Source of the DNA: Candidatus Pacearchaeota archaeon
GTDB lineage: Archaea; Nanobdellota; Nanobdellia; Pacearchaeales; GW2011-AR1
Assembly (NCBI GenBank): GCA_016866935.1
Contig: VGKS01000003.1
Location: 1-43,322, forward strand
DNA length: 43,322 bases
Direction of reading: 5' to 3'
A program made the position numbers and the translations under genes. This document shows, one piece after another, positions 1 through 9,719 of the stretch. How positions within the stretch are numbered: the first letter of the stretch is position 1; every line of letters starts with the position of its first letter. A model generated the notes under the pieces. It saw nothing but the letters and a program-made list of their open reading frames with translations. It had not been told where the DNA came from and did not search any database.

Positions 1-9
1 TATATAAAA

Positions 10-939
10 CTACTTAGGAGGCACTAAATTAGCCCAGTCATCAATAAACTGTTCTATTCCAGGCAATTGTGTTTTCATTCCCCTATTCTCAATGTAGATC
101 TTAGCTAACAAGTACATGATCATTCCCAAACTCTTTGAAGATTTGTTATTTCCAGCAATTACTTTAGTAATTCCAAACGAATAGTTATTGCTGTCACACA
201 CACTCAACACAGGAACTCCAACCTTGTTTGCATCAGTTAATGCATTCTTGTCAAGCCAAGGATCGCAAATCAAAACAAGTTTTGTTTCAAAGAAATTTGC
301 CAAGTTAGTGTTAGTTAAAATTCCAGCAGGATATTTCTTTGTGAATGATCTAATTCCCAAAGTTTCAGCGAATAAACTAACCGCATGCCATCCAGCTTCT
401 CTCTTACATACTACAATTATATCTTCAGGAGCATATTTACTTAAGAACTCTCCAGCTTCTTTTACTATGGAGTCAAGCATTGCAGTGTTGAATACTGCCA
501 GACCATCAGCACGTCTTTTGTAAATGTACTTGCGCATATTCGGAGTAATAACGCGAGTTCCCAAATGCATGGAACTCTTCAAATAATCTTCAATTGGAAC
601 AAGGGTGTTTGTAGGTTCTGTCTTCTCACCAGTAACTCTTTCCTTAATGTCTATTTTTTCAATTTCTTTGAATTTGCCTTCAAGAGCTTTTAATTTAGCT
701 TTCAAAGCCTCAGACATTTCCTTCTTAGGTTTTTTTTCTATTTCATCAGCTTGAGTTTCATTCTCTTCAGACTTCTTAGAAGATTTCTTTTTCTTAGGAT
801 TTTCATCTTCTCCAACAACAGCATGAGCTACGCCTTCAACAACTTTCTCAGCCACTTCTCCAATTTCTTCTACAATATGTTCCGCAGCATGAGCTACTTT
901 TGAAATTATTGATTCTTCTTTCTTGTGTGTTTTTGCCAT
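10..939 (-). CDS. rps2: 30S ribosomal protein S2 (uS2) with long charged N-terminal extension
   Basis: C-terminal ~195 aa match archaeal uS2 (HLGTRVITPNMRKYIYKRRADGLAVFNTAMLDSIV...DPWLDKNALTDANKVGVPVLSVCDSNN); about 115 aa Lys/Glu-rich extension precedes it; located in the classical rpoK-eno-rps2 neighbourhood. Confidence 0.93.
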   Translation of the reverse strand: MAKTHKKEESIISKVAHAAEHIVEEIGEVAEKVVEGVAHAVVGEDENPKKKKSSKKSEENETQADEIEKKPKKEMSEALKAKLKALEGKFKEIEKIDIKERVTGEKTEPTNTLVPIEDYLKSSMHLGTRVITPNMRKYIYKRRADGLAVFNTAMLDSIVKEAGEFLSKYAPEDIIVVCKREAGWHAVSLFAETLGIRSFTKKYPAGILTNTNLANFFETKLVLICDPWLDKNALTDANKVGVPVLSVCDSNNYSFGITKVIAGNNKSSKSLGMIMYLLAKIYIENRGMKTQLPGIEQFIDDWANLVPPK

Positions 940-1042
940 TGTAATTGATTATAACCAGCGCAGGGGTTTTGTCCAAGTTGTTTCAGTTGGTACCTGCTAA
1001 GTCAGAATTTAATGGGTTTAGATGGTTTTTAAAGACTTCTAT

Positions 1043-1576
1043 TTAATTTATAGAATATTCTTTATGGATAAGCCATTTTCCAGCTTCATACTTAAGAAGA
1101 GCAATATTATCAAAATCTAACTCAAAATGTGGTTTTTCTAGAGTTGAAATATATCCCCACATCTCTTCAAATACTTCTTCAATTCCTTTTGTAGCAATGG
1201 TTGCATGAAAATTAGCACCCTTGCCTTCAAACTCGCTCCAAGTCAAACCATCTACTTTTTTCAGTGAATCTAATAAGTGAGAATAACCTTCTTTCATTTT
1301 TTCGTTAGGCTTTACTCCGATAAATATAACTCTATTTCCAAAATGTCCAAAACCTTCTAACTCTAACTTGGATTTTTTATTTTTCTCGCTAAATTGTTCA
1401 AGTATCTTTTCTATTTGAGTTATATCTTCTGTTTCAAAAGGTGCCTTTAGAGTTAGGTGAGAAGGCACTTTATAAGGTAAATATTTTATTCCAAATTCAT
1501 TGGCTAAATTAGAGCATAAATTATTATGGTATTGTTTAGCCTGTCCTTTGATTAAGTATCCAATGAAATATCTCAT
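1043..1576 (-). CDS. thpR: 2'-5' RNA ligase / 2H phosphoesterase (LigT/ThpR family)
   Basis: 177 aa; paired 2H motifs HLTLKAPF and HATIATKG. Confidence 0.8.
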   Translation of the reverse strand: MRYFIGYLIKGQAKQYHNNLCSNLANEFGIKYLPYKVPSHLTLKAPFETEDITQIEKILEQFSEKNKKSKLELEGFGHFGNRVIFIGVKPNEKMKEGYSHLLDSLKKVDGLTWSEFEGKGANFHATIATKGIEEVFEEMWGYISTLEKPHFELDFDNIALLKYEAGKWLIHKEYSIN

Positions 1577-1719
1577 AGATTTTATGAATAATAAGGGATT
1601 ATAATCTTTTCTCTAGAGAAGTTTCTTAAAAGTAAGAGCAGAAGAATCATTAAAAAATTAGTCTCAATATTCTAATAATTTATCATTACTTTCTTGATAA
1701 AAGAGTCTTGCTCTTAGCT

Positions 1720-2892
1720 CTAACTTGATTTATTCAAACTTTTCTCTATTTCTATTAGCCTCTTTAGTTTAACTTCTCTCCACTGTGTTGCAATGCCACA
1801 TTTAATATAATCGGCTCCAAAACCAACGGCATAATCTGCTAAAGCATTGTCCATTGTTTCTCCAGATCTATGAGATAAAACTGTCTTAATTCCATGCTTC
1901 TTGCATAAATCAAATATCTTTTTCAGTTCAATAAGCGAACCATTTTGATTAGGTTTTATTATCATTCCAGAAATTGACTTCCTTTTTATTGCACTCAGTG
2001 TTCTAGAATATTGTGTAGCAGTTAAATCATCTCCTACAATCATAGACTTAACATTTTTATTCAACTTAGTAAAACTTGAGAAATCTCTTTGTTGAAAGGG
2101 GTCTTCTATATAGAAAAGAGAATAGTACAGAGATAACTCTTCTATAAATTTTCTCTGCCATTCAGTATCTATTTTCTTCTCATAATAATTATACTTTCCA
2201 TTCCTGAATAAAGAAGAGCTTGCACAATCTAATCCAATCTCTATATTGAATTTGAATTTTTTCCTTGTTTTAATTTTAAATCTACTTAATAAATCAAGAA
2301 CATCTCTATCGTTAAATTGCACAAGTAAAGCCCCCTCATCATTTACTTTTCTTATTTTAAGTTTTTTCTTTGCTAATCTATACAGGTAATTCATAGCTTT
2401 AATATTTTTAGCTACGGACTTTCCTTTAGGAATAACAAGAAATTCTTGAAAATTAGGGTGTTTACTTATTGAAGAGCTGTGCAATCCTCCACCAATAACG
2501 TTTCCGACAGGATTTGGTATCTTTCTTGAATTTCCTACAATTTCATACAATTCTTTTCTGTTAGTATAAGCAAGCGCCTTGAGTATTGCAGATTCAAATG
2601 CATATAAAGAGTTAGCTCCAAATCCGTTTGCATTTTTTATTCTAATCTTCTTACAAATAATCTTTTCAATTATCTTCAAATCATCAAATTTATTTATTTC
2701 AACATCTTCATTCCAATTATTTAGAAATTTAACACAAAAATCAATATTTTGATAATAAGAAGGTGTCTCATAATCTCCTGTAGACTTTCCATTTGGAGAG
2801 GAAGATTCCTCGCATCTATTTACTGAAACAGCAATTGTCTTTTCACCGCGAGAATCTTCTATCATTCTGGCTTTGACCTCTTTTATAATCAT
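1720..2892 (-). CDS. eno: Enolase (divergent, short)
   Basis: NDEGALLVQ, YIEDPFQQRD, GDDLTATQ, IIKPNQNGSLIE, SHRSGETMDNALADYAVGFGADYIKCG correspond to enolase active-site blocks; next to rpoK and rps2. Confidence 0.9.
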   Translation of the reverse strand: MIIKEVKARMIEDSRGEKTIAVSVNRCEESSSPNGKSTGDYETPSYYQNIDFCVKFLNNWNEDVEINKFDDLKIIEKIICKKIRIKNANGFGANSLYAFESAILKALAYTNRKELYEIVGNSRKIPNPVGNVIGGGLHSSSISKHPNFQEFLVIPKGKSVAKNIKAMNYLYRLAKKKLKIRKVNDEGALLVQFNDRDVLDLLSRFKIKTRKKFKFNIEIGLDCASSSLFRNGKYNYYEKKIDTEWQRKFIEELSLYYSLFYIEDPFQQRDFSSFTKLNKNVKSMIVGDDLTATQYSRTLSAIKRKSISGMIIKPNQNGSLIELKKIFDLCKKHGIKTVLSHRSGETMDNALADYAVGFGADYIKCGIATQWREVKLKRLIEIEKSLNKSS

Positions 2893-7176: not shown

Positions 7177-7902
7177 TTACTTAACAAATTTTCTAAGCTC
7201 TTCGCCGTGTAATCTCATAAGTTTGCCATCTTTCAAAGAAATCATTCCAACATCAAATCTTGAAATCTCAAAGTTTTTTCCTAGTAAATCCTTGAATATT
7301 TTCATTACAAACTTGACTCCTTCATCCATAGTCATATTCTCATTCACCGCTTTTCTCAATTCTTCCTTGACTTGTTCATCATTTTCTCCAATCGAATTAG
7401 CCTTGTAAGCAAAAAAGTTTCCAGTAATATCTGAAGTATACAAATGACCTCTTCCCTTTGAAACGCCAGCAATCATTATTGCAACTCCGTAAGGCCTTGA
7501 TCCCCCATATTGAGTATATGCTTGTTTGTTATCAGCAATCATTTGAATTACAGAAATAGGGTCAATAGGAGTCCCATAAGAAACTCTATGTTGTTGAGAT
7601 AGGAGTCTAGCTCTATCTACTAATATGCGAGCGTCAGAAGCAATTCCAGCAGCAGTTGCCATAACGTGTTCGTCAACTTCGAATACTTTCATTGCGGATT
7701 CAGGAGCAATCAAATTATCCCTTATTCTTTTATCCGCTACAATTATAACTCCATCTTTACAGACAATTCCGACACTATTACTTCCAAGCTTAACTGTCTT
7801 CTCAGCATATTCTACCTGTAACAAATGTCCCTCAGGTGAGAACATAGTTGCAGCTCTATCATAACCCATTGCTTGATGTTGCATTTCTGTTGGCATGTCC
7901 AT
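7177..7902 (-). CDS. psmA: Proteasome subunit alpha
   Basis: GYDRAATMFSPEGHLLQVEYAEKTVKLGSNSVGIVCKDGVIIVADKR is the diagnostic alpha-subunit N-terminus. Confidence 0.95.
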   Translation of the reverse strand: MDMPTEMQHQAMGYDRAATMFSPEGHLLQVEYAEKTVKLGSNSVGIVCKDGVIIVADKRIRDNLIAPESAMKVFEVDEHVMATAAGIASDARILVDRARLLSQQHRVSYGTPIDPISVIQMIADNKQAYTQYGGSRPYGVAIMIAGVSKGRGHLYTSDITGNFFAYKANSIGENDEQVKEELRKAVNENMTMDEGVKFVMKIFKDLLGKNFEISRFDVGMISLKDGKLMRLHGEELRKFVK

Positions 7903-7985
7903 TTTATTGTGTTTTTCCTTGAGTATATAAAATGGATGCTAGAAAATAATTTTCCATTTTCTTTGTATCCATTTTATTGTGTTTT
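7898..7985. repeat. 18-nt direct repeat TCCATTTTATTGTGTTTT (7898-7915 and 7968-7985) around the psmA start
   Basis: Both copies read directly; on the minus strand each copy is AAAACACAATAAAATGGA and contains an ATG. Confidence 0.85.
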
Positions 7986-8109: not shown

Positions 8110-8454
8110 TTACTTCTGAGAATGATAACCTAACAATCCCTCTAACATTTCCCTTCTTACTGGATGTTCTAACTTCCTTATAGCCTTAGCTCTTATTTGA
8201 TTAGCTCTTTCTTTTGTTGTTCTAAATATCCTACCTATTTCATCAAGAGTATAAACAAATCCGTCTCTTAAACCATATTTCAACTTGATTACTTCTCTTT
8301 CTCTAAAAGTTAATGTTCCAAGCGCTCTATCAAGACCTTGCTGTGCTTCCGCTATTTGTTCTGGAGTGTAAGTTCTACCTTCTTGGGGTTGAACTCCAAG
8401 TACACCTGCAACGAATGATTCTATTCTTTCATAAGGAATTTTTTGTTCGCTCAT
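8110..8454 (-). CDS. Sigma-70 region-4-like HTH protein (start re-assigned to MSEQKIPYERIES)
   Basis: LTFREREVIKLKYGLRDGFVYTLDEIGRIFRTTKERANQIRAKAIRKLEHPVRREML matches the bacterial sigma-70 family region 4 pattern (LTxREreVLrlRfGLddG...TLeEIGeifgvTrERiRQIeaKAlrKLrhPsR). The track start at 8526 is upstream of a TATA box; M25 (8454) fits better. Confidence 0.85.
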   Translation of the reverse strand: MSEQKIPYERIESFVAGVLGVQPQEGRTYTPEQIAEAQQGLDRALGTLTFREREVIKLKYGLRDGFVYTLDEIGRIFRTTKERANQIRAKAIRKLEHPVRREMLEGLLGYHSQK

Positions 8455-8474: not shown

Positions 8475-8483
8475 CTATATAAA
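8475..8483 (-). promoter_or_regulatory. TATA box (TTTATATAG) for the sigma-like gene
   Basis: Centred about 25 nt upstream of the ATG at 8454, consistent with leaderless archaeal transcription. Confidence 0.65.
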
Positions 8484-8622
8484 CCTTTGTATTTGTAACT
8501 ACTTCATAGTTAACTATATCTCCCAATAACTGTTATATTATATACAAGACATTTCAATAGAAGTTCAACATCTTGAGCCGTTTCATTTCTTGATCTTAAG
8601 TAGTTAAGATGCTTTCTCTTAA

Positions 8623-8901
8623 TTACACTAAAGACTTGTTCAAACCCTTTAATGTCCCGGAAACCCTTAATACCTTTAACTCATTTTTTGCAAGAGATAA
8701 TGCTGCCTTAACATTATTCAATGCCTTATTATTTATACAAAGAACAACTTCATCTGCAACTTCTGAGACGAAGACAGGTGAAGCTTTAGCCCATCCTAAA
8801 ACACCTATAAACTCAAGTATTGCTTTCTCAATATTATATCGGGAACCTTTAACTAAAATATACCTCTTATTTTCCCTTGCAGATGGTTTTAATTTAAGCA
8901 T
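8623..8901 (-). CDS. rnp2: RNase P protein component 2 (Pop5-like)
   Basis: 92 aa, LKLKPSARENKRYILVKGS...AILEFIGVLGWAKASPVFV...VLRVSGTLKGL; size and pattern fit archaeal Pop5. Confidence 0.72.
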   Translation of the reverse strand: MLKLKPSARENKRYILVKGSRYNIEKAILEFIGVLGWAKASPVFVSEVADEVVLCINNKALNNVKAALSLAKNELKVLRVSGTLKGLNKSLV

Positions 8902-9719
8902 TAGAGTACTTCAGAGCCAACTATTTCATTGGTCTTTATCTTCAACATATTGCTTTCCAAAGCAAATCCAAGTCCCTCTGCTCCTCCAACTTTAAAGTTA
9001 GCCATTCCTATTACTCTTCCATCTTTATCTACTAAAGGACCTCCAGAATTTCCAGGATTCAAAGTAACGTCTGTCTGAATATATGCAGCTAAACCGTTAG
9101 GCCCCTCCCTATCAAGCGCAGAAACAATCCCTTCAGTAACTGTAAAAGATAATCCCAATGGATTGCCTATCGCAATCGCCTTCTGGCCTATAGAAACAAA
9201 ATCAGAGTCTGCAAGCTCAAATCCTTCCAAGTCTCCTGAAATTCTTAAAACTGCTAAATCTGCTAAAGCATCTGCCCCTACAACCTGTGCAGTATAAACT
9301 TCGTTGCTATATGTCTGAACTTGAATAGTTGTGCTTCCATCTATAACGTGATTATTTGTTAAAATATAATTTCCACCAGCAACAACAAAACCAGTTCCAG
9401 CAGATATATCTGTTGTAACAGTAACTACTTTTTTAATTGCTCCTTCTATAATTAATGACAAATCTTGTTGAGTAGATCTAAGCAAATCTATCTGGTTTTC
9501 AAAGTCGCTTCTCTGTTGTGAAATTGATCTGACAATCTCTCCTACTTGATATTGATTTTCCTGCCTTATGCTTCCCAAAGAACCTTTAATCTCTTTTTCA
9601 AAACTATTCTGTTGAGCTATTAATTTAGCAGATTGAGAACTAACAAAAGTAAAAGAAACAAGTTGAACTATCAAAAGCAATATCACTGCCCCATATAAAA
9701 CATTAATATGATGTTCCAT
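8901..9719 (-). CDS. Membrane-anchored HtrA/DegP-like trypsin-family serine protease, no PDZ domain
   Basis: N-terminal TM helix; TNNHVIDG (His), ALADLAVLRI (Asp), NPGNSGGPLVD (Ser) triad motifs. Confidence 0.9.
   Translation of the reverse strand: MEHHINVLYGAVILLLIVQLVSFTFVSSQSAKLIAQQNSFEKEIKGSLGSIRQENQYQVGEIVRSISQQRSDFENQIDLLRSTQQDLSLIIEGAIKKVVTVTTDISAGTGFVVAGGNYILTNNHVIDGSTTIQVQTYSNEVYTAQVVGADALADLAVLRISGDLEGFELADSDFVSIGQKAIAIGNPLGLSFTVTEGIVSALDREGPNGLAAYIQTDVTLNPGNSGGPLVDKDGRVIGMANFKVGGAEGLGFALESNMLKIKTNEIVGSEVL

What the first reader, a model, noticed from the sequence alone, without database searches (positions are those of the whole stretch)
8110..8454. Stand-alone bacterial sigma-70 region-4-like protein in an archaeal genome
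The ~115-aa product contains LTFREREVIKLKYGLRDGFVYTLDEIGRIFRTTKERANQIRAKAIRKLEHPVR, nearly block-for-block the bacterial sigma-70 region 4 (the -35-binding HTH, including the ERxxQIxxKAxxKLxHP motif). The protein is too short for regions 1-3, so it cannot be a complete sigma factor. It sits among unmistakably archaeal genes and has its own TATA box. It may be a domesticated DNA-binding regulator, possibly interacting with the archaeal RNAP (region 4 contacts the beta-flap, conserved in archaeal RpoB).
Basis: partly seen in the sequence, partly recalled or inferred. Interest (0 to 1): 0.85.

Follow-up and report, generated by a model that had tools for sequence, protein, structure and literature searches.

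The report
Lone bacterial sigma-4 module in archaeon
A small gene in a tiny archaeon makes only the promoter-reading domain (region 4) of a bacterial sigma factor; it cannot be a sigma factor itself, and is most likely one of several sigma-derived DNA-binding regulators in this archaeal group, where complete sigma-70 proteins were already known.

Summary
Window 8110-8454 (-) encodes a 114-aa protein with a true sigma-70 region 4 (Pfam Sigma70_r4 3.7e-10; best PDB match SigA 6.8e-17; model overlays solved region 4). It lies in an unbroken archaeal cluster (htrA-rnp2-[r4]-psmA-sbds-rrp4). The cluster is present without this gene in two genomes of the same genus. The gene has the same TATA-to-ATG spacing (29 nt) as psmA, so it is not contamination or a chimera.

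It is not isolated. Region-2 sigma proteins occur in 61 of 200 genomes of the order, and sigma-70 in Woesearchaeota was published in 2021. New here, as far as I could search, are region-2-less forms: stand-alone region 4 (closest: an 87-aa protein in another family, 59% identical), XRE-HTH+region 4, and N-domain+region 4+RNAP alpha-CTD (one in this same genome). None of 14 genomes with lone or XRE-linked region 4 has a detectable region 2, which argues against a split sigma. The archaeal Rpo2 lacks the hydrophobic flap-tip helix that holds region 4 in bacteria.

Best reading: a DNA-binding transcription regulator built from a recycled sigma-4 module, not a sigma factor. Target and sign of regulation are unknown.

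The parts
8110..8454 (-). 114-aa stand-alone sigma-70 region 4 protein (P0001), stop codon included
8170..8325 (-). Sigma70_r4 domain, residues 44-95
   Evidence: Pfam PF04545, E 3.7e-10; Foldseek to solved region 4, e.g. 1rio_H TMt 0.90, rmsd 1.0
8170..8214 (-). Predicted -35-recognition helix, residues 81-95 (KERANQIRAKAIRKL); E585, R586, Q589 and K593 of E. coli RpoD kept (E82, R83, Q86, K90), R584->K81, R588->N85
   Evidence: roles of R584/E585/R588 from PMC2613000
8326..8454 (-). N-terminal 43 residues: helix 8-19, loop, start of helix 31-46 (leads into region 4.1); no region 2 or 3
   Evidence: AlphaFold2 model, mean pLDDT 78; no r2 match
8476..8483 (-). TATA box TTTATATA, 29 nt before the ATG (archaeal, leaderless-type promoter)
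   Evidence: same -29 spacing at psmA, sbds, trmB
7177..7902 (-). psmA, archaeal proteasome alpha subunit; downstream flank of the insertion slot
   Evidence: syntenic in G001 and G002
8623..8901 (-). rnp2-like (Rpp14/Pop5 family, weak match), upstream flank of the slot
   Evidence: E 2.4e-4, just below cut-off; syntenic in G001 and G002
8901..9719 (-). HtrA/DegP-like trypsin-fold serine protease, next conserved neighbour

Best explanation
The gene encodes a sequence-specific DNA-binding transcription regulator built from a detached sigma-70 region 4 module. It is not a sigma factor. Shown: the domain identity, the absence of regions 1-3 and of any region-2 partner in the assembled genome, the archaeal promoter and archaeal context, and recurrence of region-2-less region-4 proteins in the same archaeal class, often joined to other DNA-binding domains (XRE HTH; RNAP alpha-CTD). 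Inferred: it binds a -35-like motif of altered specificity (R584K, R588N) near archaeal TATA/BRE promoters and represses or activates them by position. It probably came from the sigma-70 gene pool already inside these archaea, not by a fresh transfer from a bacterium, and was dropped into a variable slot between rnp2 and psmA.
For: Domain and fold. Not a chimera: the htrA-rnp2-psmA-sbds-rrp4 backbone is shared with G002 (psmA 81% identical) and G001 (75%), with the gene absent in both; neighbours match archaeal models (uS2 euk/arch, Rrp41, Rrp42, Rrp4, SBDS, PsmA, PsmB, aCPSF1); GC 0.36 and GC3 0.19 are like the neighbours, and the TATA-ATG spacing equals that of psmA. Recurrence: stand-alone r4 in G392 (87 aa, next to a histidyl-tRNA synthetase gene), G208 (103 aa), G407 (116 aa) and weaker ones in G120, G051; XRE+r4 in G001, G058, G176, G186, G105, G046; N-domain+r4+alpha-CTD in G000 itself (contig 33), G316, G539. 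Fusion to other DNA-binding modules with no region 2 points to a DNA-binding role. No region 2 in 14 of 14 genomes carrying lone r4 or XRE-r4 (G372 is counted on alignment span alone). DNA-contact positions E585, R586, Q589, K593 retained. An isolated region-4 peptide binds promoter DNA (Dombroski 1996, cited in PMC2613000). Rpo2 lacks the flap-tip helix.
Against: No DNA-binding, expression or interaction data. No orthologue in the genus, so selection on the gene cannot be measured. A single HTH without a clear dimerisation domain may bind DNA weakly. Two recognition residues differ from consensus. Nearly all genomes are fragmented MAGs (71-93% complete in this set), so 'no region 2' is not absolute. 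Full sigma-70 proteins in relatives imply that some archaea of this group may use region 4 with RNA polymerase after all.
Confidence: 0.6

Rival explanations
1. RNAP- or TFB-docking factor: region 4 binds the archaeal polymerase (wall/flap of Rpo2) or a general factor and recruits or blocks it without needing its own DNA site.
For: Region 4 is held by the beta-flap in bacteria (PMC2613000); full sigma-70 proteins in the same order suggest that some contact with archaeal RNAP may have evolved.
Against: This organism's Rpo2 has 'GKTTPP---------KFLSEARNLS' where E. coli has '[27 protein letters not shown]': the hydrophobic flap-tip helix is missing.
Confidence: 0.15
2. Half of a split sigma factor, like Bacillus SigO (sigma-4) with RsoA (sigma-2).
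For: SigO-RsoA is a real precedent (PMC8103513).
Against: No Sigma70_r2 match in this genome (89% complete) or in any of the 14 genomes with lone r4 or XRE-r4, against 61 of 200 in the order at large.
Confidence: 0.04
3. Decaying fragment of a larger sigma or r4-alpha-CTD gene, without function.
For: Species-specific, in a slot whose content differs between congeners; its r4 groups, with modest support, with a full archaeal sigma and with the r4-alpha-CTD protein of the same genome.
Against: Intact ORF, fold-level conservation, own TATA box at the standard distance, no remnant of the missing domains on either side; a 59%-identical stand-alone protein in another family.
Confidence: 0.13
4. Cargo of a virus or mobile element, related to phage XRE-r4 regulators, serving the element and not the host.
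For: XRE-r4 proteins without region 2 are found on viral contigs, so the module moves with phages.
Against: No viral relative found with the window protein as query, no obvious viral genes among the window ORFs read, weak PHROG_36 match only (8.9e-4).
Confidence: 0.08

Closest known systems
Bacterial group-1 sigma factors (RpoD/SigA), region 4
   Same: Fold, sequence (44% identity to E. coli RpoD over 68 aa, up to about half for SigA) and most -35-contact residues
   Different: No regions 1-3; recognition-helix changes R584K, R588N; host has archaeal RNAP without the flap-tip helix
Sigma-70 proteins of DPANN archaea (Castelle et al. 2021, PMC8204110, fam00359, prevalent in Woesearchaeota; earlier archaeal sigma factors reported by Rinke et al., per PMC6126073)
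   Same: Same kind of host and the same domain; the closest full-length relative (G458) is archaeal
   Different: The window protein has only region 4
Stand-alone r4 of G392 (87 aa) and r4-alpha-CTD protein of contig 33 of this genome
   Same: Closest region 4 sequences without a region 2
   Different: G392 protein lacks the N-terminal helix segment; contig-33 protein adds an N-terminal domain and an alpha-CTD
Phage XRE+region-4 regulators and PHROG_36 'transcriptional regulator'
   Same: Region 4 used without region 2 in a ~200-aa regulator
   Different: XRE HTH attached; window protein has none; PHROG_36 match is weak
SigO-RsoA split sigma of Bacillus subtilis
   Same: Region 4 on its own polypeptide
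   Different: Partner region-2 protein required; none found here
RinA/Ltr phage late regulators
   Same: Small (~130 aa) transcription activators of similar size
   Different: Size analogy only; no homology was tested, and PMC13123087 reports that Ltrs show no similarity to known bacterial transcription factors

Membership tests
Sigma70_r4 domain (PF04545) | Match over curated cut-off | tested here: met
   39.6 bits against 24.1; fold match to solved region 4
Sigma-70 factor (functional) | Region 2 for core binding, -10 recognition and melting | tested here: not met
   114 aa, no r2 in the ORF, flanks or genome
Sigma-70 factor (functional) | Region 4 docks on the beta flap-tip helix | tested here: not met
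   Hydrophobic flap-tip helix absent from the organism's Rpo2 by sequence alignment; other docking modes not tested
Sigma-70 factor (functional) | -35 DNA recognition residues | tested here: inconclusive
   E585, R586, Q589, K593 kept; R584K and R588N
Split sigma (SigO-RsoA type) | Partner protein with region 2 in the same genome | tested here: not met
   None in G000 nor in 13 other such genomes; MAGs are incomplete
XRE-r4 regulators | N-terminal XRE/HTH_3 domain | tested here: not met
   Only Sigma70_r4 found
N-domain+r4+alpha-CTD family (this report) | N-terminal domain and C-terminal RNA_pol_A_CTD | tested here: not met
   Neither found in the ORF or flanks; r4 alone aligns at 63.9 bits
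Sequence-specific DNA-binding regulator | Specific DNA binding in vitro or in vivo | not testable with these tools
   needs purified protein

The most novel reading that the evidence does not exclude
These archaea have taken the upstream promoter-reading kit of bacterial RNA polymerase (sigma region 4, sometimes with the alpha-CTD) and use it, cut free from the polymerase, as a separate layer of regulators on top of TBP/TFB promoters, possibly with bacterial-type -35/UP sites in archaeal promoters.
Probability: 0.3. Interest if true: 0.8.

Novelty: new variant of a known kind. Interest (0 to 1): 0.52.

Why it matters
Sigma factors and TFB are the two great solutions to starting transcription, and they are usually kept apart by domain of life. 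Full sigma-70 genes in DPANN archaea have been reported without a known role. Forms that have lost the polymerase-gripping half but kept the DNA-reading half make one answer testable: at least part of this sigma pool works as ordinary DNA-binding regulators. The r4-alpha-CTD fusions, which join two bacterial polymerase modules that read adjacent promoter sites, make the idea easy to test in vitro.

Tried and rejected
Chimera or contamination: rejected by synteny, promoter spacing and composition. Split sigma: no region 2 partner. Hidden remnants of regions 2-3 or alpha-CTD around the gene: none. A match of the r4-alpha-CTD protein running through stops down to 8014 was checked by reading the downstream sequence and by the profile scan; it is not a remnant. 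Viral origin of the window protein: no relative in IMG/VR with the protein query; annotated phage hits are RpoD-like sequences. Target-site duplication by the 18-bp repeat at 7898/7968: the copies do not flank the gene. Dating the transfer by phylogeny: the 67-column region-4 tree has few supported branches; only the small group with G392, G458 and contig 33 is supported (95/84, 95/86), and the bootstrap had not converged. Co-folding with Rpo2 or TFB could not be run.

Full report
WHAT IS THERE. The ORF at 8110-8454 on the minus strand starts with ATG and gives MSEQKIPYER...LLGYHSQK, 114 aa. Pfam finds one domain, Sigma70_r4, at residues 44-95 with E 3.7e-10. NCBIfam RpoD models match only by their C-terminal ~70 residues. 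66 PDB sequences match, the best being cyanobacterial SigA at 6.8e-17 over residues 37-105. A region-4 profile built without this protein scores 75.5 bits, against 9.9 for the best of 1000 shuffles. AlphaFold2 (three-row alignment; mean pLDDT 78, above 90 in parts of region 4) gives six helices, and Foldseek matches solved region-4 structures, for example 1rio_H with TM 0.90 by target and rmsd 1.0.

CONTEXT. The genome is archaeal by its own genes: uS2 of euk/archaeal type, exosome Rrp4, Rrp41 and Rrp42, SBDS, archaeal proteasome alpha and beta, aCPSF1, plus a TFB-like protein (by its sequence) and an archaeal-type Rpo2. The order htrA-rnp2-psmA-sbds-rrp4 is shared with the two congeners G002 (psmA 81% identical) and G001 (75%), but the slot between rnp2 and psmA is empty in G002 and holds a different small ORF in G001. 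In one search the gene labelled csl4 is Rrp4 by NCBIfam. The gene has TTTATATA 29 nt before its ATG; psmA has the same box at the same distance, and sbds and trmB have TTTAAATA at -29. GC 0.36 and GC3 0.19 are those of its neighbours. This is a resident gene with an archaeal promoter and not an assembly artefact.

RELATIVES. Sigma70_r2 occurs in 61 of 200 genomes of the order, and region-4 relatives of the window protein in 76 of 371 genomes sampled across the phylum, including nearly complete ones. This agrees with Castelle et al. 2021, who reported sigma-70 as particularly prevalent in Woesearchaeota and excluded mis-binning (PMC8204110), and with the earlier report of archaeal sigma factors by Rinke et al. 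(cited in PMC6126073). The basic surprise of the finding is therefore published. What I did not find described in the papers searched are region-2-less forms: (a) stand-alone region 4: G392 (87 aa, beside a histidyl-tRNA synthetase gene), G208 (103 aa), G407 (116 aa), and more distant ones in G120 and G051; (b) XRE HTH + region 4 in G001, G058, G176, G186, G105 and G046; (c) an N-terminal domain + region 4 + RNA polymerase alpha-CTD in this genome (contig 33, truncated at its 5' end), G316 and G539. XRE-r4 proteins also occur on viral contigs, one of them with genes that look like tailed-phage genes, so form (b) is not confined to archaea.

CLOSEST KIN AND ORIGIN. The window's region 4 is 59% identical to the stand-alone protein of G392, 56% to the full sigma of G458, 46% to the contig-33 protein of its own genome, and 44% to E. 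coli RpoD. A 67-column tree groups these four archaeal sequences with 95/84 and 95/86 support; most other branches are unresolved and the bootstrap had not settled. This suggests descent from a sigma pool already in these archaea, but the tree is too short to exclude a separate bacterial source.

MECHANISM. A sigma factor needs region 2; none is found in this genome, nor in the 13 others with lone r4 or XRE-r4 (one of them, G372, is assigned to XRE-r4 by alignment span only). With completeness of 71-93%, an obligatory partner would hardly be missed in all. That disfavours the SigO-RsoA type of split sigma (PMC8103513). In bacteria region 4 is positioned by the beta-flap (PMC2613000). In the organism's Rpo2 the segment aligned to the E. 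coli flap tip is nine residues shorter and lacks LLRAIF (E. coli 901-906), so bacterial-style docking is unlikely, though other contacts are not excluded. DNA reading is plausible: E585, R586, Q589 and K593 of RpoD are kept, while R584 (contact at -31) is K and R588 is N (roles of R584, E585 and R588 in PMC2613000), and isolated region-4 peptide has been reported to bind promoter DNA (same review). The fusions to other DNA-binding modules in forms (b) and (c) point the same way. I therefore favour a DNA-binding regulator (confidence 0.6); its targets, oligomeric state and sign of action are unknown.

LIMITS. Nearly all the genomes are fragmented and incomplete. The domain is short. Domain calls use small home-made profiles, checked against Pfam for ten proteins and one more. 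No expression or binding data exist here. The literature search covered open-licence PMC papers only, so 'not described' means not found there.

Noticed in passing
L119 (contig 33 of the same genome), 2-1015 (+): Second region-4 protein of this genome, truncated at its 5' end: N-terminal domain + Sigma70_r4 + RNA polymerase alpha-CTD (E 6.5e-15); full-length relatives in G316 (L200) and G539 (L250).
   Followed up: yes
L005, L007, L026, L091, L095, L008: XRE-type HTH joined to sigma region 4, without region 2, in six archaeal genomes of the order, one of the same genus.
   Followed up: partly
L281, L285, L287, L288, L294 (IMG/VR contigs): XRE + region-4 proteins of ~175-295 aa on viral contigs; L281 carries genes that look like terminase and portal.
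   Followed up: partly
window 7898-7915 and 7968-7985: Perfect 18-bp direct repeat around the psmA start (TCCATTTTATTGTGTTTT) plus a 20-nt imperfect inverted repeat at 7927-7977; a related arrangement is seen upstream of psmA in G002.
   Followed up: partly
window 8506-8517: 12-bp perfect palindrome ATAGTTAACTAT just upstream of the TATA box of the region-4 gene; could be an operator, but chance cannot be excluded in AT-rich DNA.
   Followed up: no
L141 (G001), between rnp2 and psmA: The same slot holds a different small ORF (~135 aa, hydrophobic N-terminus, Cys-rich) in the congener: a variable slot in a conserved cluster.
   Followed up: partly
L184 (G330), L185 (G253), L187 (G285), L193 (G252): Very long open frames (682-1763 aa) containing sigma regions 2-4 in archaea of the same class; the N-terminal parts were not examined.
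   Followed up: no
L170 (G205), 1249-2805 (+): Archaeal protein with two tandem alpha-CTD-like domains at its N-terminus and no region 4.
   Followed up: no
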